From positions 496,001-560,000 of the forward strand of contig NZ_JBFCVL010000003.1 in NCBI RefSeq assembly GCF_040712075.1: a stretch of 64,000 nt of DNA, given 5' to 3'. A program made the translations under genes and the position numbers. The stretch comes from Fodinicurvata sp. EGI_FJ10296. GTDB taxonomy: Bacteria > Pseudomonadota > Alphaproteobacteria > DSM-16000 > Inquilinaceae. Under the pieces are notes generated by a model that did not search any database, had not been told where the DNA came from, and worked only from the letters and a program-made list of their open reading frames with translations. Of the stretch, positions 31,567 to 51,258 are shown piece after piece. The number at the start of each line of letters is the position of its first letter. Position 1 is the stretch's first letter.

Positions 31567-31582
31567 TTAAACGGAGCTTGCT

Positions 31583-32254: not shown

Positions 32255-32265
32255 AAGTCGGGCAC

Positions 32266-33375
32266 ATGAAGATCAGTTCCATTGAAGTCCGGGCCTGCCG
32301 GCGGGCGCCCGACGGGCTCACCGCAACGAGCCTGCGCAGCGACGATTTCCAGGGCTTCCAGTATACGGTCGTGACGATGAAGACCGACGATGGCCTGTCC
32401 GCGTCGATGCTGGGTTTCGCCGGTCGTTCGGCCCGGGGCGCCGCCATGCTTGCCGCCGACAGCCTCGCCGGCTTTTTTCTCGGGCGCAATCCACTCGACC
32501 GCGAACGGGCATGGCATGACTTCCGGATGGCGGACCGGTGGTGGGGGCACCTGCCAATCTATACCTACGGGCCGTTCGATGTCTGCCTTTGGCTCCTGTC
32601 CGCCCAGGCGGCCGACCAGCCATTGTTCCGCTATCTGGGCGCCTATCGCGATCGCATCCCGACCTATGGCAGTTCGATGATCCTGGATTCGATCGAGGAT
32701 TACGGCCGGGAAGCGTCCCGCGCGAAGGCCGAGGGGCTGAAGGCCTACAAGCTTCACACGCCCGGGCGTGACTGGCGCGACGATCTGGCCGTTCACGCTC
32801 ATGTGCGCGATGTCGTGGGCCCGGATTTCACCCTGATGTCGGACCCGGTTTCCTCCATGAACCTGGAAGAAGCGATCCGGTTCGGGCGGGCCCTGGAAAA
32901 TCTGGACTATCACTGGCTGGAGGAACCGATCTTCGACGAGGATATGCACGCGCTGAAGGAACTGACGCGCATCCTCGACATTCCCGTCGTGGGCACCGAA
33001 TACCTGGCCAAGCACCCTTACAGCGTCGCCGAAGTCATCTCGCGCCGCGTTGTCGACCGGGTCAGAGCCGACGTATCCTGGACCGGCGGCGTGACCGGCG
33101 TGATGAAAACCGCACGACTGGCGGAAAGTTTCGGCGTCAACTGCGAAGTTCACACCTCGATCTTCGCCCCGCTCGATCTGGTCAACATGCATTGCGCGGC
33201 GGCAATGCGAAATTGCGAGTTCTTCGAACTTCTGTACCCGCTGGAGAGTTTCAGTTTTGCACTGGCTGCCCCCCTGCCGATCACCGATGGCATGGCGCAT
33301 CTGCCCGAAGCCCCGGGCCTGGGCATGGACCTCGACTGGGACGAAATCGACCGATCGACCATCGCCGTATTCTGA
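32266..33375 (+). CDS. Mandelate racemase/muconate lactonizing enzyme (enolase superfamily) protein
   Basis: 369 residues with an enolase-superfamily capping domain and TIM barrel. Visible catalytic set: 'LKAYKLHTPG' near 160 (base on strand 2), metal ligands Asp in 'LMSDPVSS' near 192, Glu in 'HWLEEPIF' near 219 and Glu in 'VVGTEYL' near 244, then Asp in 'VRADVSW' and His in 'NCEVHTSIF' as the His-Asp dyad. It probably dehydrates or epimerises a sugar acid in the cytoplasm. It lies 11 nt after rraA and before the uxaA pair. Confidence 0.88.
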   Translation: MKISSIEVRACRRAPDGLTATSLRSDDFQGFQYTVVTMKTDDGLSASMLGFAGRSARGAAMLAADSLAGFFLGRNPLDRERAWHDFRMADRWWGHLPIYTYGPFDVCLWLLSAQAADQPLFRYLGAYRDRIPTYGSSMILDSIEDYGREASRAKAEGLKAYKLHTPGRDWRDDLAVHAHVRDVVGPDFTLMSDPVSSMNLEEAIRFGRALENLDYHWLEEPIFDEDMHALKELTRILDIPVVGTEYLAKHPYSVAEVISRRVVDRVRADVSWTGGVTGVMKTARLAESFGVNCEVHTSIFAPLDLVNMHCAAAMRNCEFFELLYPLESFSFALAAPLPITDGMAHLPEAPGLGMDLDWDEIDRSTIAVF

Positions 33376-33410
33376 GCGCATCATCGCCAGACGAACTTGT
33401 GGAAACCATC

Positions 33411-33734
33411 ATGACCGACTCCGATCCCCGGCTCCTGCTCCTGTCGCAGTGCGACAATGTCCTGGTCGCGCGAGAGCCGCTGGAAGCGGGGCTGACACTC
33501 ACCATCGAAGGCCAGGACTGCACGCTCGACCGCTCGATCGGTATGGGCCACAAGATTGCACGGCAGCCCATCGAACCGGGCGAGAAGGTCGTCAAATACG
33601 GCGTGTCCATCGGCACCGCCACGGCCCGCATTCCGCAGGGGATGCACGCCCATGTTCACAACCTCAAAAGCGATTATACCGCCTCCCAGACGCTTGACGC
33701 GGCCCGGATCGCCAGTGGAGAAAACTCATCATGA
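33411..33734 (+). CDS. UxaA-type hydro-lyase small subunit (SAF domain)
   Basis: 107 residues forming a SAF domain, equivalent to the N-terminal ~100 residues of altronate dehydratase UxaA or the SuyA subunit: 'NVLVAREPLEAGLTLTI', 'GHKIARQPIEPGEKVVKYG' and 'IGTATARIPQGMHAHVHNLKS' with the His pair. It overlaps the next gene by 4 nt (ATGA), so the two are co-translated and likely form one two-subunit lyase. The long in-frame extension to 33192 is out of keeping with the family. Confidence 0.9.
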   Translation: MTDSDPRLLLLSQCDNVLVAREPLEAGLTLTIEGQDCTLDRSIGMGHKIARQPIEPGEKVVKYGVSIGTATARIPQGMHAHVHNLKSDYTASQTLDAARIASGENSS

Positions 33735-34936
33735 CAGCCCCCATCCAAGGCTATCTGCGCAGCGACGGGCGCATCGGCATCCGCAACGTGATGGTCGTCG
33801 TCTATCTGGTCGAATGCGCCCACCATGTCGCCCGAAAGATCGCCGCCCCGTTCGAGGATGACGGCGTTCACGTTCTGGGATTCCCGGGCTGCTATCCCAA
33901 CGACTACGCCAACACGATCATGGAGAAACTGTGCACCCATCCCAATGTCGGCGGGGTCCTTCTGGTCTCGCTGGGCTGTGAAAGCTTCGATCGCTATACG
34001 CTGGCGCGCCATGTCCGCGACAGCGGCCGGCCGGTCAAGACCATCACCATCCAGCAGACCGGCGGCACCCGGACGTCGGTCGAAGAAGGCCGGCAATGGG
34101 TGCGCGAGACACTTCCGGCCCTGGCATCGGTGCCCCGCGCGCCGATGGACGTTTCGGATCTGATCGTCGGCACGATCTGCGGCGGGTCGGACGGCACCAG
34201 CGGCATCACGGCCAATCCGGCCATGGGACGGGCGTTCGATTTCCTGATCGAGAACGGCGCGCGGTGCATTTTCGAAGAAACCGGCGAGTTGATCGGCTGC
34301 GAGACGATCATGGCCGAACGGGCGGCGACGCCCGAACTGGGACATCTGCTGCGGGAGACGGTCGAAAAGGCGGCCCGGTACTACGCGACGCTCGGTTACG
34401 GCAGCTTCGCCGCCGGCAATGCCGATGGCGGGCTGACCACGATCGAGGAAAAATCGATGGGGGCTTATGCGAAATCGGGATCGAGCCCGATCGCCGGTAT
34501 CATCAAGCCGGGCGACGTACCGCCGCGTGGAGGGCTCTATCTGCTCGACGTGGTACCGGACGGCGAGGTCCGCTTCGGCTTTCCCAATATCAACGACACG
34601 GCGGAAATCGTCGAAATGATCGCCTGCGGCTGTCACGTCATCCTGTTTTCCACGGGGCGCGGGTCGGTCGTGGGGTCGGCTATCTCGCCCGTGATAAAGG
34701 TCTGCGCCAACCCCGAAACCTTCCGCCGGATGAGCGGCGACATGGATGTCGATGCCGGCCGGATACTGGAGGGACGCGCGGATCTGGACGATGTCGGCCA
34801 CGAGATCGAAGACCTCGTCCTTGCGGTCGCACGCGGCGGCCGCACAAAGTCCGAGGATCTGGGCCATCACGAGTTCGTGCTGACCTACAAGAGCTTCGAG
34901 CCGATCGGCCCGGGCTGCCTGCCGTCGCCAACCTGA
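33731..34936 (+). CDS. UxaA-type altronate dehydratase family, large subunit
   Basis: 401 residues matching the catalytic part of UxaA/GarD/SuyB: 'GYLRSDGRIGIRNVMVVVYLVECA' at the start, 'GFPGCYPNDYANTIMEKL', 'TICGGSDGTSGITANPAMG' near 155 and 'ACGCHVILFSTGRGSVVGSA' near 300. Three conserved Cys suggest an iron or iron-sulfur site. It removes water (or sulfite) from a 2-hydroxy acid. The last gene of the TRAP operon. Its final 498 bp are repeated at 48390, bounding a 13.5-kb island; this copy is complete. Confidence 0.9.
   Translation: MTAPIQGYLRSDGRIGIRNVMVVVYLVECAHHVARKIAAPFEDDGVHVLGFPGCYPNDYANTIMEKLCTHPNVGGVLLVSLGCESFDRYTLARHVRDSGRPVKTITIQQTGGTRTSVEEGRQWVRETLPALASVPRAPMDVSDLIVGTICGGSDGTSGITANPAMGRAFDFLIENGARCIFEETGELIGCETIMAERAATPELGHLLRETVEKAARYYATLGYGSFAAGNADGGLTTIEEKSMGAYAKSGSSPIAGIIKPGDVPPRGGLYLLDVVPDGEVRFGFPNINDTAEIVEMIACGCHVILFSTGRGSVVGSAISPVIKVCANPETFRRMSGDMDVDAGRILEGRADLDDVGHEIEDLVLAVARGGRTKSEDLGHHEFVLTYKSFEPIGPGCLPSPT
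34439..34936. repeat. Direct repeat R2, left copy (3' end of the uxaA large-subunit gene)
   Basis: 498 bp that recur at 48390-48887 with a constant offset of 13951 bp and no indel. By eye there are about 20 mismatches: roughly 17 in the first 285 bp, mostly silent, and almost none in the last 210 bp. The repeat ends at the stop codon; sequences diverge immediately after it. Confidence 0.95.
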
Positions 34937-35058
34937 TCCTGGGGACTACAGTCGCATTTATTCGTTCGGTCCGATTCTGTGTTCGGGTTTCGAGGGAGGA
35001 TCAGACAGGGACATCGATTGAATGAGCGTCGGCATTGGATGGGTTTGAGGCGGCGCAA

Positions 35059-35135
35059 ATCGGAATCCCGGCCGGAATGAAATCGGAATAGGTGGCCGGT
35101 GATTGATTGGAATCAGCGGCCGCTTTGATTGTAAT
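35059..35135. repeat. Four spaced copies of ATYGGAAT-like octamers (probable IS21-family end)
   Basis: ATCGGAAT at 35059 and 35082, ATTGGAAT at 35106 and ATTGTAAT at 35128, spaced 22-24 bp. Multiple ~20-bp terminal repeats are typical of IS21-family ends. No istA/istB coding sequence is left nearby. The array lies just inside the left boundary of the island. The rest of the gene-free stretch 34937-35411 shows no further feature I can name. Confidence 0.5.
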
Positions 35136-35411
35136 ACGCAATACAGAATGACCCATAGTGTATCAAAACCGGCAGCAGCTGGCTTTACAGCACGGGGTTG
35201 AAGCCGATGCCAACGCCTCCGACAAACTCGTTGCGGTTCAGAATATGGCCGCACCGGCTGCTCGGAAGATCGCTTTGATGAAAACGAAATGCGCCCTCCG
35301 GGAGTTTGCTGTCGAGCCTTTGGCGTGTCGATGACGCAGGCGACGAGCGAGCTGATCCACGCCTGATAATGGGGACTGCGATCGCGATCGGAAGCATGAG
35401 AAGGGAAGTGC

Positions 35412-37898
35412 ATGGTTGAGGATACGAACGCGTGGGTGGTGGTATACGAGGGCTTCGATGCCGGCAAGGAAGGCCTGCGGGAAGCCTTGTGCACGCTCGG
35501 CAACGGCTACTTCGCGACGCGGGGAGCCGCTGCCGATGCCTGCGACGACGAGGTGCATTATCCCGGCACCTACCTCGCCAGCGGCTACAACCGCCTCGAA
35601 AGCGAGGTATCCGGACGCACGATCCGGAACGAAGACCTCGTGAACATGCCGAACTGGCTTCCTCTGACCTTCCGCATCGAGGACGGACCGTGGTTCAGGC
35701 TCAATCAGGTCGAGCTTCTCCATTATCGGCAGGAACTCGATCTGCGTCACGGCCAATTGCGGCGTGACATCCGCTTTCGCGACGGCGAGGGTCGGATCAC
35801 GCGCTGGGAGGAGCGGCGCATCGTCGGCATGTCGAACCCGCACCTCGCGGGGCTCGAAGTCTCGATTACGCCCGAGAACTGGTCGGGCGTCGTGACCTTC
35901 CGCTCCGAAATCGACGGCAGCGTGATCAACAACGGGGTCGCGCGCTATCGCCAGCTCGCGTCCCGCCACATCGACATCCTCGAATTGGATTATCCGGGCA
36001 GCCAGAGCATGTTCCTCCAATGTCGGACGAACCAGTCTCGCATTCAGGTGGCGATGGCGGCGCGCACGCGCCTTCTCGGTCGCGACGGCGTGACCGACGC
36101 GAGATGCGAAAACGGCAAATCCGAGACCAAGGTCTGGCAGGATCTGACCTGCACGGCAGACCAGGGCGTACGCATCACCGCCGAGAAGATCCTCGCGCTG
36201 CACGATTCGCGCAACTGTGCCATCGCCGAGGCCGGACTGGAGGCGAAGCGAACGCTCAGCCATGCGCGGGATTTCGAGAGCCTGCGAGAAGCGCACGAGA
36301 TCGCCTGGTGTCATCTGTGGGACGACTGCGATATCGAACTGGCAGACGGCGTGGCTGCGGATACCGAGTTGAAGCTGCGGCTGCACATCTTCCACATCCT
36401 CCAGACGGCATCGCCGCATTCGATCGATCTCGACGCCGGGATCCCGGCGCGCGGCTGGCACGGAGAAGCCTATCGCGGACACATTTTCTGGGACGAGATC
36501 TTCGTCTTCCCGTTCCTCAGCCTGCGCCTGCCCACCCTGGCCCGCGCGCTGCTGCGCTACCGCTACCGGCGGCTGCCGGAGGCGCGGCGAGCGGCGAAGG
36601 TCGAGGGCTATGAGGGGGCCATGTTCCCCTGGCAGAGCGGCAGCAACGGAGAGGAGGAGACGCAGCACTTGCACCTCAATCCTCAATCCGGACGTTGGCT
36701 CCCCGACGATACGCATCGCCAGCGCCACATCAACGCGGCTATCGCCTTCAACATATGGCAGTACCACCAGGCCACCGACGACCATGAATTCCTCTACACC
36801 TTCGGGGCAGAAATGTTCTTCGAGATCGCGCGGTTCTGGGTCAGCATGACGACATACAACCCCGAGATCGACCGCTATGAGATCAAGGGCGTCATGGGGC
36901 CGGACGAATACCACACCGCCTATCCCGACGCGGACCACGAAGAGGGCGGCGGGCTCGACAACAACGCCTACACCAACGTCATGGTCTCGTGGATCCTGAC
37001 GCGGGTGGAGGACATCATCGCGGTGCTGCCCAGAAGCCAGGCGGAGCGCATCTGCGAGCGCATCGGATTGCATCGCGACGATATGGACAAGTGGCACGAG
37101 ATCAGCCGCAAGCTGCGGGTGCCGTTTCACGCCGACGGTGTCATCAGCCAGTTCGAAGGCTACGAGAAGCTGAAGGAGTTCGACTGGGACGGGTATCGCG
37201 AAAAGTACGACGACATCCACCGGCTCGATCGTCTCCTCGAAGCGGAGGGCGACGACGTTAACCGCTACAAGGCGTCGAAGCAGGCCGACGTGCTGATGCT
37301 GTTCTACCTGTTCTCGGCGGACGAACTCTACCTCATCTTCGAGCGTCTCGGATACCGCTTCCCGCCGTCCAACATCCGCAAGACGATCGACTATTATCTC
37401 GCCCGCACCTCACACGGCTCGACCTTGAGCGGGGTCGCGCATTCCTGGGTGCTGGCCCGCTCCGACCGTTCGCATTCCTGGCGGCTTTTCCAGTGGGCGC
37501 TCGACAGCGACTACTCCGACCTACAGGGCGGCACCACCCCCGAGGGCATCCATGTCGGCGCGATGGCGGGGACGATCGATCTCGTGCAGCGCTGCTATGT
37601 GGGGCTCGAAATGCGCGGGAACACGCTGCATTTCGATCCGGCGCTGCCGGAGGACCTGCACCGGATCAAGGTGCGCCTGCGTTATCGGCGGCAGGTGCTG
37701 GAGGTCGATGTCGATCACGACAAGCTGCACATCGCCAGCCGCTCCTTCAGCTCGACAGCCATCAGGATCGCCTATCGCGGCCACTACCGCGATCTCGCCG
37801 CCGGCGAAACCTGCGATTTCCGCCTGATCAAGCCGGAGGAGCGCAATCGCGACGAGAACTGCGCCGATGGGGATTGCAGCGACGCCCCAGTGCAATGA
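35412..37898 (+). CDS. Glycoside hydrolase family 65 phosphorylase (kojibiose/trehalose/maltose type)
   Basis: 828 residues with GH65 layout: an N-terminal beta-sandwich (about 1-270), a linker, an (alpha/alpha)6 barrel (about 320-690) and a small C-terminal beta domain. The catalytic acid is the Glu of 'KGVMGPDEYHTAYPDADHEE' near 500; 'PARGWHGEAYRGHIFWDEI' near 350 and 'FPWQSGSNGEEE' near 415 line the sugar site; 'HGSTLSGVAHSWVLA' near 670 is the phosphate loop. The reaction is likely disaccharide plus phosphate to beta-glucose-1-phosphate plus glucose, which the beta-PGM domain encoded at 42742 could use. Exact substrate not deducible. Confidence 0.9.
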   Translation: MVEDTNAWVVVYEGFDAGKEGLREALCTLGNGYFATRGAAADACDDEVHYPGTYLASGYNRLESEVSGRTIRNEDLVNMPNWLPLTFRIEDGPWFRLNQVELLHYRQELDLRHGQLRRDIRFRDGEGRITRWEERRIVGMSNPHLAGLEVSITPENWSGVVTFRSEIDGSVINNGVARYRQLASRHIDILELDYPGSQSMFLQCRTNQSRIQVAMAARTRLLGRDGVTDARCENGKSETKVWQDLTCTADQGVRITAEKILALHDSRNCAIAEAGLEAKRTLSHARDFESLREAHEIAWCHLWDDCDIELADGVAADTELKLRLHIFHILQTASPHSIDLDAGIPARGWHGEAYRGHIFWDEIFVFPFLSLRLPTLARALLRYRYRRLPEARRAAKVEGYEGAMFPWQSGSNGEEETQHLHLNPQSGRWLPDDTHRQRHINAAIAFNIWQYHQATDDHEFLYTFGAEMFFEIARFWVSMTTYNPEIDRYEIKGVMGPDEYHTAYPDADHEEGGGLDNNAYTNVMVSWILTRVEDIIAVLPRSQAERICERIGLHRDDMDKWHEISRKLRVPFHADGVISQFEGYEKLKEFDWDGYREKYDDIHRLDRLLEAEGDDVNRYKASKQADVLMLFYLFSADELYLIFERLGYRFPPSNIRKTIDYYLARTSHGSTLSGVAHSWVLARSDRSHSWRLFQWALDSDYSDLQGGTTPEGIHVGAMAGTIDLVQRCYVGLEMRGNTLHFDPALPEDLHRIKVRLRYRRQVLEVDVDHDKLHIASRSFSSTAIRIAYRGHYRDLAAGETCDFRLIKPEERNRDENCADGDCSDAPVQ

Positions 37899-38029
37899 GG
37901 AGGATACCGGGCATGTGGGAACCGCTCTTGGACCAGGCATGGTGTGGCGGCCATAGCGTCAACCACGGGCGGAAGCATCGTCCCGGTGAGAGAGCAAATC
38001 TGAAACAGCAGCCTCAGGCTCGTCGGCTG

Positions 38030-38211
38030 GAAACGTGGTCCAGCCGGTTCGGCGTGCTCTTGCCGGCCAGCGACGCACAGCGTGCCCGGCGCGCCTCCAG
38101 CCGCTCAAGCACCGTGCGGATCACCGGGGCGCGGCGCAACTCGTCATGATCGTTCAGGTCCTCGTAGCCCAGCGCGATGCCGCACACGCGCTGGCCGATA
38201 GCCGACTGCGG
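38030..38211 (-). pseudogene. IS1380-family transposase fragment
   Basis: About 60 minus-strand codons read 'QRVCGIALGYEDLNDHDELR' followed by 'RAPVIRTVLERLEARRARCA' and 'SLAGKSTPNRLDHVS', the conserved N-terminal part of IS1380-type transposases. Both ends are cut and the catalytic domain is missing. It lies within an otherwise gene-free stretch, 37899-38353, downstream of the GH65 gene. Confidence 0.8.
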
Positions 38212-38353
38212 ACCGCTGCTCCGGCGCCGCGGTTATCCAGGCATGTCCTGGCCGGGGTAGGTTCCAGTAGGGGGCAGAATGATTCCTACCGGAACCCACC
38301 CAGACTGGGCTCCGAAACGATCTTGGCATAGCAACAAAATAAATGGCAGTCAC

Positions 38354-38614
38354 CTATATATCTTTTTTTCCACTAATGATCTCCACCTGAGGTCGGGCTG
38401 CATCTTTGACCTTCCCAATGACTATGGCCGGTTCTGCGATAGCCCGCGCATGCTTTTTAATAGACCGATGAATAGAGTCCATATCCTCGAATATCTTACC
38501 GTCAAGGTCAACAAACTCGGCGCGTGTGGTGAAAAACATCATTTTGCGATCGATACTGACAGCGTCGCCAGCCACACCGTTATCGAGATAAACACGTTGG
38601 ACAATCACTGACAT
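38354..38614 (-). CDS. Hypothetical small protein
   Basis: I do not recognise this 86-residue protein. It has no signal peptide or membrane helix, a mixed alpha/beta pattern ('VIVQRVYLDNGVAGDAVSID') and lower GC than its neighbours. A strong ribosome site (GGAGGTGAGG) directly precedes the ATG, which supports real expression. It stands alone, divergent from the Crp/Fnr gene. Confidence 0.55.
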   Translation of the reverse strand: MSVIVQRVYLDNGVAGDAVSIDRKMMFFTTRAEFVDLDGKIFEDMDSIHRSIKKHARAIAEPAIVIGKVKDAARPQVEIISGKKDI

Positions 38615-39050
38615 ACCTCACCTCCGTACAGCGCAAGCCTTCCATCAATTAAGAGTCTGCATCAAAGTTCTGGCAAGAACTCTATTATTTGTTCTACGCC
38701 ATTCATCCCCTTCTCGTGCAACTGTGAAATTGGCACGTAAAGGCTACTGCGGCCGGGCTCACACTGCATTAACCGCGATCAATCGCTGAAGGTGAGAATA
38801 CGAAAGATCAGTGGTCCGCGTGACCCATCGCCAGACGGCCTAGCGCCTCATACCATCTTGTGTTCTGTGTGCGCCTGCAGCATGCTGATTGCACCCGGGA
38901 TGGCAGAGATCAATGCACGCAACTCAGGTGTCACGTATGCACGACCCAGACCACCCGATTCGCTCGCACCCGGGACAAGGTCGCGCAGACCGTTCGCAAG
39001 GCGCAAGAGGCAGCCGGGCCGGTGCCCGGACAAAGCCCGACAAGGAGGCC
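38615..39050. other. Leader region between the 86-residue gene and the Crp/Fnr gene
   Basis: 436 bp with promoter-like AT-rich DNA in 38640-38720 and GC-rich DNA afterwards. Open frames run through 38889-39050 in continuity with the regulator but lack family similarity and a ribosome site. I see no other gene. Confidence 0.45.
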
Positions 39051-39782
39051 ATGGACAGCCCGCCGCGAGGGCCGAGGAGCGCCGCTGCGACCGTAGAGCA
39101 TTTGCGCAGCCAATCCCGCTCGCGGATCGGACCTTCCCTCGCTTCGCTTCTCGTGAAATTGGCCCGGCGCACGCGGCCCGGCTTGCTCTCTTTCGAAGGT
39201 GATGGTGTGCTTTTCCCGCTTGCCGGCTGGATCTCGCTTTTCAAGATGATGGAAAATGGCAACACGCAGATCATCGACTTCGCCCTACCAGGCGACATCG
39301 TACACTTGGCCACGGGCGACGGGATCACCATCGAAGTGCTGGAGGAAGGGTTCGTCGCTGTCATACCGTCCGCCCAATGGGAACAGTTGATGCAAGATGA
39401 GCCAGACGTTCTGCGCCTTGTATTGCGAGAGTCTGCCGCCGCCAGGTCTCGCATCGCAGAACGGATGCTGCGCCTCGGCAAGGGAAGCGCCGAGATGCGG
39501 CTGGCCTATGTTCTTCTGGAGCTATGCCTGCGCGTAACGGGCGGCAACCGAGCCACGTCAGCGCCTTTCCACGTGCCCCTGACACAGCAGCGAATTGGCG
39601 ACTTCATCGGACTTACCTCGGTGCACATCTCGCGCACCACAAGGCGGCTGACGCGTTTGGGCGCGATCAGGATGACCGATCACCTGACCTTCGAGCTGAC
39701 GGATGTCGATGCCCTGTGCGAAATTGCGGGCTTCGACATGGACACGCTGCGGCACAAGATCCTGTTGCCGATGGGCACCTGA
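39051..39782 (+). CDS. Crp/Fnr family transcriptional regulator
   Basis: 243 residues with a cyclic-nucleotide-binding-like sensor domain at about 20-130 ('DGVLFPLAGWISLFKMMENG', 'IIDFALPGDIVHLA') and a winged HTH near 165-215 ('LTQQRIGDFIGLTSVHISRTTRRL'). There are no N-terminal Cys clusters, so it is not an FNR [4Fe-4S] sensor; the signal is unknown. AAGGAGG just before the ATG decides the start; an in-frame opening at 38889 is not used. It is probably the regulator of the island's stress genes. Confidence 0.88.
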   Translation: MDSPPRGPRSAAATVEHLRSQSRSRIGPSLASLLVKLARRTRPGLLSFEGDGVLFPLAGWISLFKMMENGNTQIIDFALPGDIVHLATGDGITIEVLEEGFVAVIPSAQWEQLMQDEPDVLRLVLRESAAARSRIAERMLRLGKGSAEMRLAYVLLELCLRVTGGNRATSAPFHVPLTQQRIGDFIGLTSVHISRTTRRLTRLGAIRMTDHLTFELTDVDALCEIAGFDMDTLRHKILLPMGT

Positions 39783-40081
39783 GCACGCCTCAATTTCACC
39801 TGCATCGTGGTAACGGGACGGTTCATCCTGTGGATGCAGCCACCGCCGAAACGGATCTTAGCCAATCATCGCTGCAATAGCGCAGTGCACGTCGGACGCG
39901 ATTGCTGTCAGCCGGCATCCGGCCAGTCCGGATATTGCTTAGTCCCGGATCGTGCTTAGTCAGTGTCCCGGCGGGGTATTGCCTTCCATGCCCTCGCGCA
40001 TACAAACCTTCCTGCCTACGCGGGTGACCGGGGTGACCGGGGGTGAGTGTCTGCTGCGTCCTGTCTGCCTGCTCCGGGCGG
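39783..40081. other. Gene-free stretch after the Crp/Fnr gene
   Basis: About 300 bp with short C/G-rich tandem imperfect repeats near 40015-40045 (GGGTGACCGGGGTGACCGGGGG). No gene is seen. The following CBS fragment is on the other strand. Confidence 0.4.
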
Positions 40082-40216
40082 CTACCGGAACTCGACGATC
40101 TCTCCCAACGTTTCGCCGGCCAAATGTTCGGAGTAATGCTCTGCAATATCGCCGACAGAGACTATGCCGGCCAGCCGTCCCGCGTCGTCGCATATTACCA
40201 GCCGGCGGGCCGAATT
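40082..40216 (-). pseudogene. CBS-domain protein, C-terminal fragment
   Basis: 44 codons end a CBS domain: 'ARRLVICDDAGRLAGIVSVG' then 'DIAEHYSEHLAGETLGEIVEF' and TAG. An in-frame TAG stands immediately upstream, so no start exists. A second open stretch upstream ('RGLQSLIERIAEGIARGKS') is not recognisably CBS. CBS-domain proteins are common members of the stress islands that this region resembles. Confidence 0.75.
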
Positions 40217-40482
40217 CTAGCTTTTGCCTCGCGCGATACCCTCCGCTATTCGTTCTATCAAGGATTGCAATCCCCTCAACAGGCAGTCTGCGCTTATCTG
40301 CACGATCCTGCCTTTACCTGCGTTGCCGCGCGCATATCAATTTGCATTTTCTGCGCCGGGATCCCCGCGGCAGGTTAATCGCTGTTAATGCGCTGTGCCC
40401 GCGAGCCGTGCGAAGAGTGGATCATCAAAATTCTGGCGCGGCCACCGGGAATAGGCCGCTCCCGAAACAGGGGGGTGCAGCA

Positions 40483-41463
40483 ATGACCGAACGATGCACG
40501 ACGGGCCGCTTTGCCAGCATTCCGCTCCTGGGTTCGGGCCGGGCCGGGAGACGGCACAGCATAACCCGCAAGCTGGGCAACATGCCGAATGTCGCGCTTC
40601 GTGCCATGCAAGACTACGGCCTCTCTGACCTGGACATCGCCCGCTACTACGGCCTGACGCTCGCTTCCGTCCGGCGTCTGTCTCAACTCTTTTCAGTCGC
40701 TCCGGGCAGGCCCGATTCCGGTTGTTGGATCGGTCGGCACAAGGTGGCAAGGCAAGCCCCTTCGGCGGCTGAGCAGGATCGAACCTACGAAGCGGACACC
40801 AATACGAGAAATGATCCATGCAAACCCGCGAGCATCGGCGAGATCGCGTCCGCAACCGAGATGAATACGGCCTTTCGCAGGATCCCGCAGCAGCGTCATC
40901 CATTTATCATTCCGGATGATCCCACAGCCAGTGAGCGCGTCGGAGATGTTTTTGCCGATAACGGCTTTCTGACCGAGCCGCGCAAGCGCGAATGCCACAA
41001 CTGTGGCGACGCCTCCGAAGCCCTCGCGGCTTTCTTGCAGAGGCAATCTGGTCCCGGGACCGTACATGCCTTCGATGAGCGTGACTGCCACGATCACTAT
41101 ACGCTGGAAATGCCTTTCCTGACGGCGGCGAAGGGCCGCAGGATGCGCAAACCTGATACTAGGGGCGGACAGCAACGAAACGGCTGTCGACATGCAGATT
41201 TCCGACCAATGCGAAGGCACAAGGCGTCGCCCACCGAAATCATGCTGCTTCTGCCCAAGCTGCGGTTTGCCGCGCGGGTTATGACCGGAAGCGCGGAGAG
41301 GGGCGACCATTTGGTCGCGCAGACCCTCAAACGTGCCATCGCCGAGGCGGCGCGCAAGCCGTGGGAGGTTCCGCTGCTGGATTGGTTGAACGGGATAATG
41401 GACGAATACCTTGCTTCACGCATTTATCCGGATGACATTCGATGGATCCGCAGACTGCACTGA
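40483..41463 (+). CDS. Chimeric-looking hypothetical protein with an HTH-like start and a sigma-region-2-like end
   Basis: 326 codons. Residues about 45-70 look like a helix-turn-helix ('DYGLSDLDIARYYGLTLASV'). The last ~65 residues ('LPKLRFAARVMTGSAERGDH', then 'LVAQTLKRAIAEA') resemble region 2 of ECF sigma factors. The middle has no recognisable pattern. GGGGGGTG before the ATG at 40483 supports that start. Surrounded by IS remnants and gene stumps, this may be three pieces joined by deletion rather than a working gene. Confidence 0.4.
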   Translation: MTERCTTGRFASIPLLGSGRAGRRHSITRKLGNMPNVALRAMQDYGLSDLDIARYYGLTLASVRRLSQLFSVAPGRPDSGCWIGRHKVARQAPSAAEQDRTYEADTNTRNDPCKPASIGEIASATEMNTAFRRIPQQRHPFIIPDDPTASERVGDVFADNGFLTEPRKRECHNCGDASEALAAFLQRQSGPGTVHAFDERDCHDHYTLEMPFLTAAKGRRMRKPDTRGGQQRNGCRHADFRPMRRHKASPTEIMLLLPKLRFAARVMTGSAERGDHLVAQTLKRAIAEAARKPWEVPLLDWLNGIMDEYLASRIYPDDIRWIRRLH

Positions 41464-41645
41464 CAGGCGGTTTCACCGACCGCAGGATGCGTGCGATTCC
41501 CCGAGGCACACCTGTCAGGGGCTCTGTCCAAGTGAACTGATGTCCGCTCTGGGTCGACCTCATGCCTAACTCACAAGCACCAAGCGTCAGGCGTCGCCCA
41601 ATAACTGGCAATTTTCGCCTGACGTGCACGCTCAGAGCCGGGTGC

Positions 41646-41792
41646 TCACGTGATCGCGATTTTCTTTGAGCCGTCTGGGTCTTTCTTGGGCAAATTCAGC
41701 GTCAGAATCCCATTTTCGTATTTCGCCTTGACCTTGGTTTCGGACGCAGCGGCCGGGAGCGCAAAACTACGCTGAATCGATCTGAACCGCGC
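41646..41792 (-). pseudogene. Hsp20/alpha-crystallin, C-terminal fragment
   Basis: 48 codons give the end of a small heat-shock protein: 'RSFALPAAASETKVKAKYEN' and 'GILTLNLPKKDPDGSKKIAI', with the conserved G-x-L strand (normally 'NGVLTLTLPK'). The family is about 150-165 residues; the first two thirds are missing and replaced upstream by IS3 sequence, which shows that the IS arrival or a later deletion cut the gene. Confidence 0.85.
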
Positions 41793-41975
41793 CGAGTTTG
41801 TCGGAGGCGGTTTTGTTGGAGTTACGCCGCCATGTCTGGCTGTTCCAGCTTGGCATCGTAGCGTGCCTCAGCTTCAGGAATCGCCCACACTGCCGACCGA
41901 CGACTCTTTGCCGGCCCAGTCGTTCGGTGTATTTGATCGACAAATATTGGGCGGTCTCAACCGGTCGTCGCAACA
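41793..41975 (-). pseudogene. IS3-family transposase (OrfB) C-terminal remnant
   Basis: Minus-strand codons include 'PVETAQYLSIKYTERLG', which matches the conserved 'QYxSIxYTERL' stretch of the IS3 integrase core before its catalytic Glu, then degenerate frames to 'SQTWRRNSNKTASDKLGAVQ', typical of the 3' end of such elements. It has frameshifts and is cut on its upstream side by IS30 sequence. Confidence 0.65.
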
Positions 41976-42328
41976 TGGTCAGTTCGGCATGACGGGCCAT
42001 CTCGGCCCCCTGATTGCATGACAGGGACCGACGAAGATGCCATGGCAGATGGACGATGCTGCGCAGAATGGCATCTCGCACAGCTTCGGCCCCCATGACC
42101 TGCAAGAGGCGGCCCGTTCTTGAGGCGGGGCCCCGCGCCGTGCCCGGGCATCCGTGGAAGGTGAAGCAGCAGTGTGAAGCGCGTCTGGCGCTCGACAAGG
42201 GTGCCGATGGCGGAACGATTGAGCCCGATGATCAAGTCGGCTTCCCGGTGGCCGGGAACGGCGCGATTATCGGCTTCGGCAGCGCGCTCGCCGATCATGA
42301 TTTCGGTCGGCGGTCGAGCTCCGCCCAA
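41976..42328 (-). pseudogene. IS30-family transposase fragment with frameshift
   Basis: Two overlapping frames cover the DDE core: 'DNRAVPGHREADLIIGLNRS' with 'AIGTLVERQTRFTLLLHLPR' in one, then 'VRDAILRSIVHLPWHLRRSL' and 'NQGAEMARHAELTM' in the next. The first catalytic Asp (normally 'WEGDLI') is changed to 'READLI' context but kept as Asp; the second, normally in 'WDQG', has become 'CNQG'. Both ends are missing. It sits inside IS3 sequence. Confidence 0.8.
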
Positions 42329-42329
42329 G

Positions 42330-42680
42330 CAAAATACGCCTGGCTTTCGGCAGGATCTCGTTGGCCTGCATAAGCTCCCGGTTCTCCCGCTCCAGCGCCT
42401 TCAACAGTTGGCCCCATCTCGCTCGTGACGCCGGTCTGTTCGCCGCTATCGACCTCAGACTTGCTGATCCACTTGTGCCGCGCGTTCGTCGAGCAACCGA
42501 TCTTCTAGGAAACCGGTCGAATTGCCGCCCAACGGCTCTCGTGCTCTTCTTGATTGTCCAGAACCATGCGAACCGCACGCTCGCGGAATCAGCTTGCGGA
42601 TCGTCTCGCCGAGCGATGCGTTCTTGCCCACGACGCGAGTGTTGTCATTGCGACTGAGTCGGCGAACCAGCATACGAGGG
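42330..42680 (-). pseudogene. IS3-family OrfA remnant
   Basis: The minus strand carries 'LLKALERENRELMQANEILPKA', split here as LLKALERENREL and MQANEILPKA, the leucine-zipper end of IS3 OrfA; upstream frames contain 'RERAVRMVLD'-like codons out of phase. Several frameshifts make it inactive. Together with the OrfB tail at 41793 it suggests one IS3 element split by an IS30 piece. Confidence 0.65.
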
Positions 42681-42741
42681 GGTCGCCGTCTTGGACCTTG
42701 TCCATCATTGCAATCACCTTCAGGAAAATATCAGTCGGTCG

Positions 42742-44324
42742 TCAGTTCCCGGAGGAGCCGTGCGTCGCAAGCCATTCCAGGAACCGTTCCACGTCTGCGG
42801 TATCGGCCAGCGCGTAACGGGCGGCCGTCGGCCGATCCTTTTCGTCGCGCACGACGAGGCCGATGCCGCGCCGGCTTATCGCGCGGAAGGCGTCCTCGTC
42901 GGTGGTGTCGTCGCCGAGATAGACCGGGACCACGTCCGGCTTGTCGAGCCCGCGCCTTTCGAGCAGCGCGGTCAGCGCCCGACCCTTGTGCCAGTCGGTT
43001 CTCGGCTTGACGTCGAAGATCTTCTTTCCCGCTGAGTGGCGCAGGCGCTCGAAGCGGGCCATGACCGCGTCGACAGCGTCCTCGACATCTGGCATGTCCG
43101 CCTTGTTCACCTTCCGGAAGTGCACGGCGAGGGAGAACGACTTGCGCTCCACGGATGCGCCTTCGATGTCCCGCAGCGCATCGCTCAACGCGCTCTCGGC
43201 GCGGTCGAGATCGGGCAGAAACGCCTTGCCCTGCTCGACATCTTCGCGCCAGCCGCCCGGACCCGCCATGGCGAAACCGTGACTGCCGGCGTAGAAGAGT
43301 CCGTCGAGCCCGACGAACGCGCGGACGTCGTCCAGATCGCGCCCGCTGACGATCGCCGTGGGAAGGCTCAATGCCAGGCGCTTGACGGCCTGCTTCATTC
43401 CGTCCGACAGGATCGCCTGCTTCGGATCCTCGACGATGGGCGTCAAGGTGCCGTCGTAATCGAGAAACACCACAGGCCGTTTGCCGGCGAGCCTTTCGCG
43501 CAGCTCGTCCTCGCGATCCCGGGCCAAGGGCAGATTGTGCAGCGTCTTGACGAACAGGCTCATTGTCGTCGGGTCGAAATCGAGTTCGCCGAGATCCGCC
43601 AGGACGATATCCGCGCCGGCATCCGCAAGCTCCGCCCGATGCCCTTCGCGGGCGACCCCGATTACCGGTGAGAAGCCGCCGCGCACGCCCGCCTCGACCC
43701 CCGACGACGCATCCTCAACGACGGCCGCCCCTTCGACCCGCGCGCCGAGGCGTTCAAGCGATTGCACCAGGATGGCGGGATCGGGCTTGCCGGGCAGGTC
43801 GAGTTCGGCCATGTCCTCGCCATCGACCTTGGCGTCGAACAGTTCGAGCACTCCGGCGGAGCGCAGCACCGCCGCTGCGTTCCTGCTCGACGAAAAGACG
43901 GCGAGCTTTACGCCGGCTGCTTTCAGCTTATCCATCAAGGCAAGTGTGCCGGGAAAAGCTTCGGTGCGGTTCTCTTCGAGCCAGGCGTTGAAGTAGCGGT
44001 TCTTGCGGTTCCCGAGCCCGCAGATCGTCTCGCGCCCCGGAGCATCGTCTTCGTCGCCACGGGGCAGCAAGATGCCGCGGGATTCGAGGAAGCTTCTCAC
44101 ACCGTCGTAGCGCAGCTTGCCATCAACGTATATACGATAATCGATCTCGGTGAACGGCTCGAATGCATCGCCCTCGGTCCGGCTGCGCAGATAGGCGTCG
44201 AAGAGCTGCTTCCAGGCCGCGAAGTGCGCCGTCGCGGTATCGGTGACGACGCCATCCATGTCGAACAGCACGGCCGAGATCCGGGTGCCCGGGGCCGCGT
44301 CGGCTCCGCTCGTCGCTGGCCGGC

Positions 44325-44328
<4 letters not shown>
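42742..44328 (-). CDS. Fusion of beta-phosphoglucomutase (HAD) and trehalose-6-phosphate phosphatase
   Basis: 528 residues. Domain 1 (about 15-255) is a beta-PGM-type HAD enzyme: nucleophile loop 'VLFDMDGVVTDTA', 'SSSRNAA', 'LPGKPDPAILVQSL' and 'VVEDASSGVEAG'. Domain 2 (about 285-520) is an OtsB phosphatase: 'VVFLDYDGTLTPIVEDP', 'AIVSGRDLDDV' and 'VYLGDDTTDEDAF'. It would turn beta-glucose-1-phosphate into glucose-6-phosphate and trehalose-6-phosphate into trehalose. The start overlaps the end of the P-type ATPase gene by 4 nt, so the two are co-translated. With the GH65 gene at 35412 it rebuilds the three-domain OtsB1 known from mycobacteria. Confidence 0.9.
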
Positions 44329-47261
<2,933 letters not shown>

Positions 47262-47318
47262 TCTTCTTCCGCCTCCAGCCACTCTCTTTAGTCGTCGACC
47301 TTTTCGCCACCCCGTGTT

Positions 47319-47511
47319 TTAGCGGATATTGTCCAGCCGGGCATTGAATCCGCCTTGCCTTGGCCGGCGATAAGGAACGCGGCGGCGCCACTTCGTGGCC
47401 ATGGTCTTCGCCTGGCGCACCATCTGCGCCGCATAGGCCCATTCGTTGTCGTACCAGGTCCGGATCTTGACGAGACCGCCATCGACCACGATCGTGCTGT
47501 CGAGATCGACG
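47319..47511 (-). pseudogene. Glyceraldehyde-3-phosphate dehydrogenase, C-terminal fragment
   Basis: The minus strand encodes 'DLDSTIVVDGGLVKIRTWYD' and 'NEWAYAAQMVRQAKTMA', the last strand and helix of GAPDH with the conserved W-Y-D-N-E-W. The catalytic Cys domain and Rossmann fold are absent. It is fused by a deletion to the start of a phosphoglycerate kinase gene in a different frame. The upstream (left) neighbour on this strand is the P-type ATPase. Confidence 0.8.
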
Positions 47512-47718
47512 GGTCCCGCTCGCGCTTCGGTTTGCCGCGATGTGACATCACGACGGGCGTCCCGTCGCGCTCCACGATTTCCCTGATGGTCGGTGCCGCA
47601 GCTCGGATACACTGGTCTTCCGTCGCCTTCCCGTCCTTGACCGGAACGTTCAGATCGGCCCGCACCAGCGCACGCCGATCCATTGTCTGGAGATCGTCCG
47701 GGGTCCGCAGCACGTGAT
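47512..47718 (-). pseudogene. Phosphoglycerate kinase, N-terminal fragment
   Basis: About 65 codons match the PGK N-terminus: 'LQTMDRRALVRADLNVPVKD' with the substrate-binding Arg and Asn, then 'IRAAAPTIREIVERDGTPVV' and 'MSHRGKPK'. The match ends at about 47512, where GAPDH sequence takes over. In normal glycolytic operons gap precedes pgk, so this order (pgk start, gap end) implies a deletion spanning a tandem or rearranged copy. Confidence 0.8.
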
Positions 47719-48052
47719 CCTCGCGCTCTCGATCGGCGGGTAGAATGCCCGCACGCCGACTGCCGCCAGCGATGATGTTGACTGTTTTTGAACTCGACGG
47801 CAAAGCGAATGTTTCCGACGCAAACGGATGAACCGAGATGCGGGCCGATGAAGAACTTCGACGTGATTTGCGCCTAACCGTTAACCGTGTGGGACGCTGC
47901 GATTCGCGCGGTCCACGTGCACACTGCGCCGAGGCGGAGGCCGGAACCGCCTCGGACGAGCCACTGGGCGGTGGTCGAACGATAGCCGAACCCGCCCGAT
48001 CGAGTGGCGGCATTGCGCCGAACCTCTCGCGAAATGGTCAAGGCCCCCCGGC
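47719..48052. other. Gene-free stretch between the PGK fragment and a small minus-strand gene
   Basis: 334 bp with no start codon in good context and no recognisable protein. Presumably the old promoter region of the lost glycolytic genes. Confidence 0.4.
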
Positions 48053-48292
48053 CTAGCAGATTGCTGAAAAGCTCTCCCGGACAGCGGTGAGTATGGCTTC
48101 GTCACCCTGGTCGAAGGTAAATTCGATCTCCAGGGCGCCATCGTCAAGCAGTTCGGCCGAGCCAGTGCCGGCGACCTCGTCCATCTCGTCGAGACCGCGC
48201 CAGGTTAAATGGATGATTGCCTGGCTGTAGCCGAGATCGAAGCCGGCTTGAAGCGCCCCGAAGGCGATCTCACTGCGTCCGTTCGCGGCCAC
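48053..48292 (-). CDS. Small acidic hypothetical protein
   Basis: 79 residues, one domain, with alternating strands ('EIAFGALQAGFDLGYSQAII') and an acidic C-terminal half ('LLDDGALEIEFTFDQGDEAI'). Similar small acidic proteins occur beside stress genes, but I cannot name the family. The start codon is not ATG and the ribosome site is weak. It lies near the right border of the island and may be a remnant. Confidence 0.45.
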   Translation of the reverse strand: MAANGRSEIAFGALQAGFDLGYSQAIIHLTWRGLDEMDEVAGTGSAELLDDGALEIEFTFDQGDEAILTAVRESFSAIC

Positions 48293-48389
48293 GATAAAGG
48301 CCGCGGGTGATCTGCGAAGGTTACCGGATGGGCCACAGAGCTGGCTTTCGAGCCAATGCCACGTTCGACCTTGTTAAATCCGATAGAGT

Positions 48390-48887
48390 ACGATCGAGGA
48401 AAAATCGATGGGAGCCTATGCGAAATCGGGATCGAGCCCGATCGCCGGTATCATCAAGCCGGGCGACGTGCCGCCGCGTGGAGGGCTCTATCTGCTCGAC
48501 GTGGTACCGGACGGCGAGGTCCGCTACGGCTTTCCGAACATCAACGACACCGCGGAAATCGTCGAGATGATCGCCTGCGGCTGTCATGTCATCCTGTTCT
48601 CCACGGGGCGCGGATCCGTCGTCGGATCGGCCATCTCACCCGTGATAAAGGTCTGCGCCAATCCCGAAACCTTCCGCCGGATGAGCGGCGACATGGATGT
48701 CGATGCCGGCCGGATACTGGACGGACGCGCGGATCTGGACGATGTCGGCCACGAGATCGAAGACCTCGTCCTTGCGGTCGCACGCGGCGGCCGCACAAAG
48801 TCCGAGGATCTGGGCCATCACGAGTTCGTGCTGACCTACAAGAGCTTCGAGCCGATCGGCCCGGGCTGCCTGCCGTCGCCCACTTGA
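48390..48887. repeat. Direct repeat R2, right copy
   Basis: Second copy of the 498-bp 3' end of the uxaA large-subunit gene (left copy 34439-34936). Upstream of 48390 the sequence is unrelated to uxaA. The coding frame is preserved to its TGA. Confidence 0.95.
48390..48887 (+). pseudogene. UxaA-type dehydratase large subunit, 3' fragment
   Basis: About 165 codons duplicate residues about 237-401 of the intact gene at 33731, with two amino-acid changes easily seen (Phe to Tyr in 'VRYGFPN', Glu to Asp in 'ILDGRADL'). The N-terminal catalytic part is absent. An ATG at 48408 opens a 159-codon frame, but without the first domain it should be inactive. Confidence 0.9.
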
Positions 48888-48995
48888 ATGGGCGGCGCGC
48901 GGCAGCGTCGGTCGACCGGCGGTTAACCGGTTCTTAGGAAATGTCGGCAACAGAATCAGTGCTGATATTGATGCAGGCACCGTATGGAGGTTGAC

Positions 48996-49451
48996 GTGAC
49001 TATCTTCGCCCAACGCTGGTTTTCCGCCGTCGCCGTGTTTTTCGCGACGGCGCTGATCGCGGCATCGGCCACCGCCGACGAGCGGATCGCCGTTGTCGAA
49101 TCGGTCTACGCTCATGACGGCAGCCGGGACACGCCGCCCGGCGGATACGAGATCTGGGCTGATGAGATCTCGGTCATCTGGGAAGATATGCTGGCGAGGG
49201 CTGCCGCCGCAGATGCCGAAACGCCGACTGTCTTTCCCCCCACCACAGGCGGCGACCTGTCGGTGGAGCTGATTACGGCAGCGGACTCCGAAGCCGCGGT
49301 CTCCGCCGTCTTCGACGACGGCAAGAGCAGTGCGGAAGTCACCTTCGGCCTGATCGAGGAAGATGGCGCGTGGAAGATCCGCGATGTATGGCGAGAAGGG
49401 CGCGACGGCAATCGCCAGTACATATCCGAGATGCTTCAGCAGATCCCATAA
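48996..49451 (+). CDS. Secreted hypothetical protein
   Basis: 151 residues with a signal peptide ending near 'ASATADE' (about 30). The mature domain alternates helices and strands and ends 'VTFGLIEEDGAWKIRDVWRE', a pattern seen in small NTF2-like/DUF3828-type periplasmic proteins; I cannot confirm the family. The GTG at 48996 has AGG about 7 nt upstream; the ATG at 48984 would put the SD inside the gene. A hairpin at 49496 may end transcription. Confidence 0.65.
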   Translation: MTIFAQRWFSAVAVFFATALIAASATADERIAVVESVYAHDGSRDTPPGGYEIWADEISVIWEDMLARAAAADAETPTVFPPTTGGDLSVELITAADSEAAVSAVFDDGKSSAEVTFGLIEEDGAWKIRDVWREGRDGNRQYISEMLQQIP

Positions 49452-49800: not shown

Positions 49801-51258
49801 TCATGACACAGTTGGCAATGTGACAGTGACCGTTGTTCCCTCACCAAGTTCGCTTTCAATTGATAGAGCGCCGCCATGAAGCCTCACCAGTCGGTCGGCA
49901 ATCGGGAGTCCCAGGCCGACCCCTTCAAAACGCCGGCTCAAATCCGCATCCACCTGATAGAAAGGCTTCAGCACCTGGGAAACATGTTCAGCTGACATCC
50001 CGACACCCTGATCCCGAATTTCCACGGCAAAGCCGCCCGGCACGTGATGGCCCGAAATCTCTATCGATTGACCATAAGGCGAGAATTTTATAGCGTTGGC
50101 AATTATTTGACCAAAGATTTGACGCAGGCGCTGCTCATCGGCGCGCAACTGCACCCCTGCGTTAGCAAGGCTGTTTTGGATGGAGCCCATGGATTTTGGG
50201 CACCCCGTTTTCGGAGCATACGCGGTCGCCAAGTCGGCCGCGGCGTCCACGACGTTGCCAAGATCGACGATCTCGGACGATAGGGAGATGTGGTCCGCAT
50301 CGATGCGCGAAAACTCAAGAATCTCGTTGATAATTCCCAAAAGATGTTCGCCACTTATCTTTATGTCCTGTGCATAGTCGGCGTATTTGGCATCTAGGGA
50401 ACCAAGACGGCGCTGGGCAATAATCTCAGAAAAGCCAATGATTGCATTGAGCGGCGTCCTGAGTTCATGCCCCATAGTGGCCAAGAATTGTGATTTTGCC
50501 TTGTCAGCCTCTTCGGCACGCTGCTTGGCAACCATCAACTCACGCGCCAGGCGGGCATTGATCTGTGCGGTTTCGATCTGATGGGCCAGCAGATGCCGGG
50601 CTCGTGAGGCCGCCAAGGCGAGCACAAACGTCACGGCCAGTATGGCGATCACTTTCGCGATATCGACACCAAGCAATATGCTGTTCGACGTGAGGTACGT
50701 CACATAATTGTCCGTGCGCCCTGCTTCGGACGGCGCGGTCATCATGGCGAAAACAACGAGCAAGCTCCATCCTGCTGCGCTGAGCACGCCGCAGATTACC
50801 AGAAAACGTGGATCGAAATTTAAGACTCGCAACGATATGAATAAGAAAATAAATATAAATTCTGGTGATTTAAGATAAAATGACGCAGGTTGGCCGTATT
50901 GTAGGTGAAACGACCAAATCATGCCGAATAACAATACGATGTCTATGATGATAGATGAAAATAGATATGACTTCGGCAGGCTGTACCGGTGAGCTAAAAA
51001 AAGCCTGCCGGCAGTCAAAAAGAAGTATACAATGAGAAACCAAGGCACAGGCTCAGTAGACACGTCTTCCGGAAAAGCTTTTGGTCCGATGAAATATGCG
51101 AACGAAAAAACCGCAAGCAACGCCATCTGGACCCAGCCGACAAGCACCTCGCTACGATGCTGCTCTTTGTCGATCGCAGTTTGAACCGCTTCCGAAACTG
51201 ACGGTTGCCGGATGATTCTCTCTTGGATCGCGTCGAAATATGCCAATTGACGCCTCAA
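49801..51258 (-). CDS. Membrane-bound sensor histidine kinase
   Basis: 485 residues: a sensor of about six membrane helices (40-225), a short coiled coil ('LARELMVAKQRAEEADKAKSQ'), HisKA with the phosphorylated His in 'FLATMGHELRTPLNAIIGFSE' (split: FLATMGHELRTPLN, AIIGFSE) near 265, and an HATPase domain with N ('IIANAIKFSPYG'), G1 ('IRDQGVGMS') and G2 ('EGVGLGLPIADRLV') boxes. No receiver domain, and no response regulator nearby. The start is TTG at 51258 without a good ribosome site, so it is uncertain. The part encoding the membrane helices is markedly AT-rich (50800-51060), unlike the neighbours. Confidence 0.88.
   Translation of the reverse strand: MRRQLAYFDAIQERIIRQPSVSEAVQTAIDKEQHRSEVLVGWVQMALLAVFSFAYFIGPKAFPEDVSTEPVPWFLIVYFFLTAGRLFLAHRYSLPKSYLFSSIIIDIVLLFGMIWSFHLQYGQPASFYLKSPEFIFIFLFISLRVLNFDPRFLVICGVLSAAGWSLLVVFAMMTAPSEAGRTDNYVTYLTSNSILLGVDIAKVIAILAVTFVLALAASRARHLLAHQIETAQINARLARELMVAKQRAEEADKAKSQFLATMGHELRTPLNAIIGFSEIIAQRRLGSLDAKYADYAQDIKISGEHLLGIINEILEFSRIDADHISLSSEIVDLGNVVDAAADLATAYAPKTGCPKSMGSIQNSLANAGVQLRADEQRLRQIFGQIIANAIKFSPYGQSIEISGHHVPGGFAVEIRDQGVGMSAEHVSQVLKPFYQVDADLSRRFEGVGLGLPIADRLVRLHGGALSIESELGEGTTVTVTLPTVS

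What the first reader, a model, noticed from the sequence alone, without database searches (positions are those of the whole stretch)
34439..48887. A 13.5-kb island bounded by a 498-bp direct repeat of the uxaA 3' end
The intact uxaA large-subunit gene ends at 34936; the same 498 bp recur at 48390-48887 with no indel, ending at the stop codon. Between them lie sugar-phosphorylase, ATPase and regulator genes and IS debris unrelated to the flanking catabolic operon. This is what integration by a single crossover of a circle carrying the gene's 3' end would leave, or a large duplication followed by replacement.
Basis: partly seen in the sequence, partly recalled or inferred. Interest (0 to 1): 0.72.

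Follow-up and report, generated by a model that had tools for sequence, protein, structure and literature searches.

The report
Old DNA insertion flanked by gene fragment
A scarred 13.5-kb block of unrelated genes sits between an intact sugar-acid gene and a slightly different broken copy of that gene's end, most likely the ordinary trace of foreign DNA that joined the chromosome by one homologous and one accidental join.

Summary
The repeat is real: 34439-34936 and 48390-48887 align over 498 bp without a gap at 96.0% (20 mismatches), the only two matches found in the genome. (1) Not a fresh duplication: 18 of 20 differences are synonymous (dS 0.16, dN 0.005), so the copies diverged while both belonged to working genes. 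(2) The left edge is an accidental join: copy 2 is fused, at 7 shared bases, to an internal piece of an IS110-family element. (3) The right edge is the stop codon, beyond which the flanks differ. (4) The 13,453 bp between are a scrambled, decaying block: relics of five IS kinds, a probable inversion that split a GH65/phosphatase operon, and deletions relative to a paralogous contig. No integrase, relaxase or replication gene was recognised. Best reading: single-crossover integration of a donor molecule closed by an accidental join, as gives 109-950-bp partial duplications in E. coli experiments. An older paralogue trimmed later, or an assembly ambiguity at the 158-bp identical tract, remain possible. 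The empty site could not be tested: no genus mate was listed and the next gene (48984) has no clear homologue. Ordinary kind; low interest.

The parts
33731..34936 (+). intact uxaA-type large subunit (altronate/galactarate dehydratase family), last gene of a TRAP transporter / RraA-like / enolase-superfamily / SAF / UxaA gene string
   Evidence: Pfam PF20629 and PF04295; upstream genes
34439..34936 (+). direct repeat, copy 1 (3' 498 bp of intact uxaA)
35056..35141 (+). relic of an IS21-family end
   Evidence: 71 of 87 columns identical to a Sinorhizobium sojae plasmid stretch downstream of istB
35214..35242 (-). 29-bp end of an IS3-type element, inverted relative to 41781-41809 (93%); probable left inversion boundary
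   Evidence: IS3 label from annotations listed
35412..37898 (+). GH65-family protein
   Evidence: PF03636, PF03632, PF03633; 48-53% aa to five family loci
38889..39782 (+). Crp/FNR-type regulator (open frame; true start not determined)
   Evidence: PF13545 above cut-off, PF00027 just below it
39676..41484 (+). block paralogous to contig C17 (Crp 3' end, most of a CBS gene missing, PhyR-sigma2-like stretch)
   Evidence: pieces at 85, 97 and 89%; about 296 and 551 bp of C17 absent; CBS gene on C17
41781..42587 (.). nested IS3-type and IS30-type relics
42742..44328 (-). HAD/beta-phosphoglucomutase-like domain fused to trehalose-phosphatase domain
   Evidence: PF00702, PF13419, PF02358; match directly upstream of GH65 on the same strand in 5 of 5 family loci fetched
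44325..47282 (-). P-type cation-transporting ATPase
   Evidence: PF00122, PF00689, PF00690
47288..48013 (-). phosphoglycerate kinase relic (N-terminal 67 profile positions only)
   Evidence: PF00162 positions 2-68 of 379
48053..48308 (-). relic of a DDE_Tnp_1-type IS (tail with its downstream small ORF)
   Evidence: 91% to C17:1783-2038; transposase on C17; inverted ends on C17 read by eye
48308..48396 (+). internal noncoding piece of an IS110-family element
   Evidence: 77 of 89 columns identical to L134; aligned with 10 relatives, 8 of which share sequence beyond the join
48390..48396 (+). 7-bp microhomology (ACGATCG) at the IS110 relic / uxaA join
   Evidence: 7 or more shared bases at a random join in 0.06% of trials
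48390..48887 (+). direct repeat, copy 2 (truncated uxaA, frame still open)
48984..49451 (+). orphan small ORF, first gene right of the repeat
   Evidence: no Pfam hit; no homologue in the 16 other family genomes; two marginal ones among 385 class genomes, own included

Best explanation
The structure is an insertion-duplication left by foreign DNA. A donor molecule from a related lineage carried a uxaA ortholog about 4% different, with its own downstream sequence, beside an accessory gene block. Its uxaA end had been joined at 7 shared bases to an IS110 relic, either by end-joining of a linear fragment into a circle or by a microhomology deletion. One RecA-type crossover in the shared uxaA stretch put it into the chromosome, so the resident gene was rebuilt whole on the left and a truncated 3' copy was left on the right. 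The block was then (or already) scarred by IS insertions, an inversion of about 6.5 kb between inverted IS3 ends, and deletions. Shown: repeat, divergence pattern, microhomology join, IS relics, family gene order, deletions relative to C17. Inferred: donor, crossover, inversion, order of events.
For: Divergence under selection: 18 synonymous and 2 nonsynonymous changes (F/Y, E/D), dS 0.16, dN 0.005; P(2 or fewer nonsynonymous of 20) is 1.7e-9 if all changes were neutral and 0.007 if half were. Left edge of copy 2 is a 7-bp microhomology join inside an IS110-family element that in 8 of 10 aligned relatives continues past that point with common sequence; random joins reach 7 bp or more in 0.06% of trials. 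Right edge is the stop codon with unrelated flanks. A 158-bp mismatch-free tract (P 0.006) at sites hardly more conserved among 81 orthologs than the rest (third-base agreement 0.569 against 0.525 and 0.558) looks like a conversion or crossover footprint. No second copy of the rest of the operon found (40 of 195 first-look candidates scored). No recombinase, relaxase or replication gene recognised in 34 of the 58 open frames of 80 aa or more in the block; the other 24 overlap the GH65, phosphatase or ATPase genes and were not scanned. Precedent: 56 of 60 E. coli clones gave a PCR product diagnostic of partial lacZ duplication; 14 sequenced had 109-950 bp, attributed to single crossover of a circular molecule lacking part of the homology (PMC3240628, passages and section 12 seen).
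Against: No donor, empty site or close relative was found, so a donor lineage is not shown. The microhomology join could be a later deletion rather than the integration step, since the block shows other deletions relative to C17. Only 3 of 10 aligned IS110 relatives carry ACGATCG exactly, so the state of the element before the join is itself inferred. In the precedent's own four HFIR clones three joins had no shared base and one had a single base, so microhomology is not a required mark. The block's base composition does not stand out (62.0% G+C against 62.3% in the 20 kb to the left). The mosaic test is one test on 20 sites.
Confidence: 0.55

Rival explanations
1. Two full uxaA genes (an old paralogue or an earlier tandem arrangement) lay on either side of accessory DNA for a long time; a microhomology deletion with an IS110 relic later removed the 5' part of the second gene and its surroundings.
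For: dS 0.16 with dN 0.005 needs two functional genes, not necessarily two organisms. Other deletions are seen in the block relative to C17. IS relics are fused to each other at 48308.
Against: In the rest of the operon (25001-34438) the only other matches in the genome are at 64-84% and fall in the transporter-gene stretches; none falls in 31583-34438. Flanks right of both copies differ from the stop codon onward.
Confidence: 0.25
2. Assembly ambiguity: the block is a separate 13,951-bp circle, or lies elsewhere, and was threaded into the contig through the 158-bp identical tract shared by the two copies.
For: Draft genome of 32 contigs; longest mismatch-free tract 158 bp near the right edge. 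A chromosome and a circle sharing that tract could assemble into this order (inference).
Against: Copies differ at 20 sites, so read pairs should resolve the repeat (inference; no reads were seen); no replication gene recognised in 34 of 58 block open frames, the rest overlapping known genes.
Confidence: 0.08
3. A site-specific integrative element that targets the uxaA 3' end and regenerates it.
For: The gene stays intact on one side and a 3' copy lies on the other, as with elements that integrate in gene 3' ends (recalled).
Against: No integrase recognised in 34 of 58 block open frames, the rest overlapping known genes; repeat edges are a microhomology join to IS debris and a stop codon; 4% divergence with a synonymous bias over 498 bp.
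Confidence: 0.03
4. IS-mediated assembly in place: successive transpositions and IS-IS recombination brought a uxaA fragment, carried along with neighbouring IS, next to the block.
For: Relics of IS21, IS3, IS30, IS110 and a DDE_Tnp_1-type IS, some close to the edges.
Against: No IS terminus was seen at either edge of the repeat: the IS110 piece is internal and the IS21 relic starts 120 bp beyond copy 1.
Confidence: 0.09

Closest known systems
Single-crossover (Campbell-type) insertion-duplication by a recircularised, partly truncated molecule (E. coli conjugation experiments, PMC3240628)
   Same: Foreign DNA beside a direct duplication of part of one gene (109-950 bp in 14 sequenced clones there, 498 bp here); one edge set by where homology was lost
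   Different: There the homologous segment is a cloned piece of E. coli lacZ; here the copies differ by 4% and the insert is old and scarred
Homology-facilitated illegitimate recombination (HFIR)
   Same: One homologous and one illegitimate join; the paper's introduction gives a 3-10 bp microhomology in most cases, 7 bp here
   Different: HFIR generally deletes recipient DNA, here recipient sequence is duplicated; and that paper's own four HFIR joins had 0 or 1 shared base
Displaced downstream genes in Vibrio cholerae type VI clusters, proposed to arise by an HFIR-like step (PMC5361080)
   Same: New DNA anchored by homology shifts an older segment downstream
   Different: Those arrays are effector/immunity modules; no such genes recognised here, and there the mechanism is a proposal
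Integrative elements that insert in gene 3' ends by an integrase (recalled)
   Same: Gene left intact, displaced 3' copy at the other end
   Different: No integrase recognised; much longer and diverged repeat

Membership tests
Single-crossover insertion-duplication | direct repeat of one homologous segment flanking the inserted DNA, one copy completing the gene | tested here: met
Single-crossover insertion-duplication | empty site in a close relative | not testable with these tools
   no genus mate listed; uxaA matched along its length at DNA level only in G006 among 16 other family genomes; orphan 48984 ORF
Single-crossover insertion-duplication | inserted DNA foreign to the locus | tested here: inconclusive
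   no hit (tblastn, E 1e-8) to GH65, phosphatase, Crp, PGK relic or 48984 ORF within up to 10 kb of uxaA in 80 named loci; one P-type ATPase hit (33%, L054); base composition not distinct
HFIR | homology at one join, microhomology usual at the other | tested here: met
   7 bp at 48390-48396; 498 bp of uxaA
HFIR | deletion of recipient DNA | tested here: inconclusive
   a duplication is seen instead; no ancestral site to compare
Integrase-borne island | integrase gene in the element | tested here: not met
   none recognised with Pfam in 34 of 58 block open frames of 80 aa or more; the other 24 overlap GH65, phosphatase or ATPase
Composite transposon | IS termini at both edges | tested here: not met

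The most novel reading that the evidence does not exclude
The block is a mobile unit without an integrase that still moves in and out through RecA recombination between the two uxaA stretches, carrying a trehalose-type sugar metabolism operon among related strains and reshuffling the uxaA 3' end each time.
Probability: 0.05. Interest if true: 0.4.

Novelty: new member of a known kind. Interest (0 to 1): 0.2.

Why it matters
It is a readable fossil of gene transfer in which each join can be seen: one by homology, one by seven shared bases. It also warns against reading every gene-end repeat as an integrase attachment site. It changes no general picture.

Tried and rejected
IS110 insertion end: I first took 48390 for the right end of an IS110-family element inserted in uxaA. 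Aligning 10 relatives showed shared sequence beyond that point in 8 of 10, so the piece is internal and the join a microhomology.

Second copy of the operon elsewhere: searched 25001-34438 in the own genome; 50 matches besides itself at 64-84%, all before query base 6416 (window 31416), that is in the transporter stretches; none in 31583-34438 (40 of 195 first-look candidates scored).

Organism by 16S: no match in the own genome; not pursued.

Assigning the 20 differences to native or donor by comparing with 81 orthologs gave no clear split.

Full report
Observation. The two copies at 34439-34936 and 48390-48887 align over 498 bp with no indel and 20 mismatches (96.0%). In the same register the next 400 bp on either side match in 2-10 of every 20 bases. 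A search of the 4.83-Mb, 32-contig genome finds only these two at E <= 0.001 (40 of 93 first-look candidates scored). The left copy is the 3' end of an intact uxaA-type gene (33731-34936); the right copy keeps an open frame but only the end of the C-terminal domain.

The copies are old relatives, not a fresh duplication. Of 20 differences, 18 are synonymous; the two amino-acid changes are F/Y and E/D. Nei-Gojobori estimates are dS 0.16 and dN 0.005. If all changes were neutral, two or fewer nonsynonymous would have probability 1.7e-9; if half were neutral, 0.007. So most of the divergence arose while both sequences were parts of working genes. Mismatches are uneven: 18 lie in 34462-34771, none in the next 158 bp, two in the last two codons. 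With mismatches dealt over third positions, a gap that long has probability 0.006. Third-base agreement with 81 orthologs (80 named loci and G006), counted where the amino acid is the same, is 0.569 there, 0.525 in 34439-34771 and 0.558 before the repeat, so constraint hardly explains it. A conversion or crossover tract is a fair inference, from one test.

Edges. Upstream of copy 2, 48053-48308 is a relic of a DDE_Tnp_1-type IS, whose longer relative lies on contig C17 of the same genome. 48308-48396 matches noncoding sequence behind IS110-family transposase genes (annotated as IS110 family in L167 and L168, as 'transposase' in L134). I aligned 10 such pieces, from 10 of the 23 plasmid records matched (L134, nine). 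By eye, 8 of 10 share sequence beyond the join, and L167 and L168 align with each other to about 85 bp past it, so the window's piece is internal to the element. ACGATCG is present exactly in 3 of 10, including the two with the highest identity to the window (L134, L161). The uxaA gene has the same seven bases at 34439-34445, so the join shows 7-bp microhomology; random joins between L134 and uxaA reach 7 or more in 0.06% of trials. After copy 1, 119 bp without a match lead to a relic of an IS21-family end at 35056-35141. The stretches after the two stop codons share only matches of 6-8 bp, none better than E 0.24.

Inside. Genes: GH65-family enzyme (35412-37898, +), Crp-type regulator, HAD/trehalose-phosphatase fusion (42742-44328, -), P-type ATPase (44325-47282, -), phosphoglycerate kinase relic. 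In the family, 9 of 17 genomes (own included) have a GH65 match. I fetched the five with long matches at 49-54%; a sixth (G001, 57% but partial), the weaker hits of G006 and G007 and the second hit of G012 were not examined for neighbours. In all five the phosphatase match ends 48-115 bp upstream of the GH65 match on the same strand (one of them, L141, is cut by its contig end). In the window the two genes lie on opposite strands, separated by 4.8 kb. Inverted 29-bp IS3-type ends (93%) at 35214-35242 and 41781-41809 bracket GH65 and the regulator. Turning that interval round would put GH65 back on the phosphatase strand, downstream of it, with the IS3/IS30 relics between. This is an inference. 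The block 39676-41484 has a paralogue on contig C17 (pieces at 85, 97 and 89%); about 296 bp of C17, including most of a CBS-domain gene, and 551 bp are absent from the window.

Mechanism. No integrase, relaxase or replication gene was recognised with Pfam in 34 of the 58 open frames of 80 aa or more that lie wholly in the block; the other 24 overlap the GH65, phosphatase or ATPase genes and were not scanned. One homologous crossover and one accidental join account for the outline. In E. coli conjugation experiments (PMC3240628; passages and section 12 seen), 56 of 60 Lac- clones gave a PCR product diagnostic of a partial lacZ duplication, and 14 sequenced ones had 109-950 bp; the authors attribute them to single crossing-over of circles that lacked part of the homologous segment. 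The other 4 of 60 were HFIR with deletions; their joins had no shared base in three and one base in the fourth, although the introduction gives 3-10 bp as usual for HFIR elsewhere. A displacement of older genes downstream by an HFIR-like step is proposed for V. cholerae type VI clusters (PMC5361080, passages seen). Of PMC3784515 (merodiploids in pneumococcus) I saw passages; it is background only. The join at 48390 may instead be a later deletion; the two histories give the same sequence.

What could not be tested. No member of the same genus appears among the 61 genomes. Only G006 of 16 other family genomes matches uxaA along its length at DNA level (72%); the best of the named genome scan is 76% aa. 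The first gene to the right, 48984-49451, has no homologue in the 16 other family genomes and two marginal ones among 385 class genomes, own included (E 7e-4 and 9e-4). In 80 named uxaA loci with up to 10 kb of flank there was no hit at E 1e-8 to GH65, phosphatase, Crp regulator, PGK relic or the 48984 ORF; one locus (L054) has a 33% P-type ATPase hit. So neither the empty site nor the native downstream flank is known, and assembly ambiguity around the 158-bp identical tract cannot be excluded. The block's G+C (62.0%) equals that of the 20 kb to the left (62.3%), so composition gives no sign of foreign origin.

Verdict. A real, explainable relic of a known kind of recombination; the anatomy is clear, the history inferred.

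Noticed in passing
L124 (contig C17) about 502-2038: A DDE_Tnp_1-type IS seems to carry a second small ORF whose start overlaps the transposase stop; DNA relatives of that ORF on rhizobial plasmids are mostly annotated as hypothetical proteins in the rows listed. A possible passenger gene.
   Followed up: no
L124:1-102 and contig C9:260-361: Contig C17's first 102 bases match bases near the start of contig C9 at 99%, so the two contigs may adjoin or share a repeat.
   Followed up: no
42742-44328: HAD/phosphoglucomutase-like and trehalose-phosphatase domains are fused in one frame here; in the four family loci that cover both, tblastn gives two stretches whose starts are not in the same frame.
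   Followed up: partly
41781-42587: IS30-type relic between IS3-type pieces; a Roseomonas plasmid (L136) has an IS30 between similar pieces but in the other relative orientation.
   Followed up: no
50000-54000: G+C falls to 51-57% right of the repeat, against 61.5% for the window.
   Followed up: no
whole genome G000: No 16S rRNA match in the own genome although completeness is given as 99.4%; missing from the draft or withheld.
   Followed up: no
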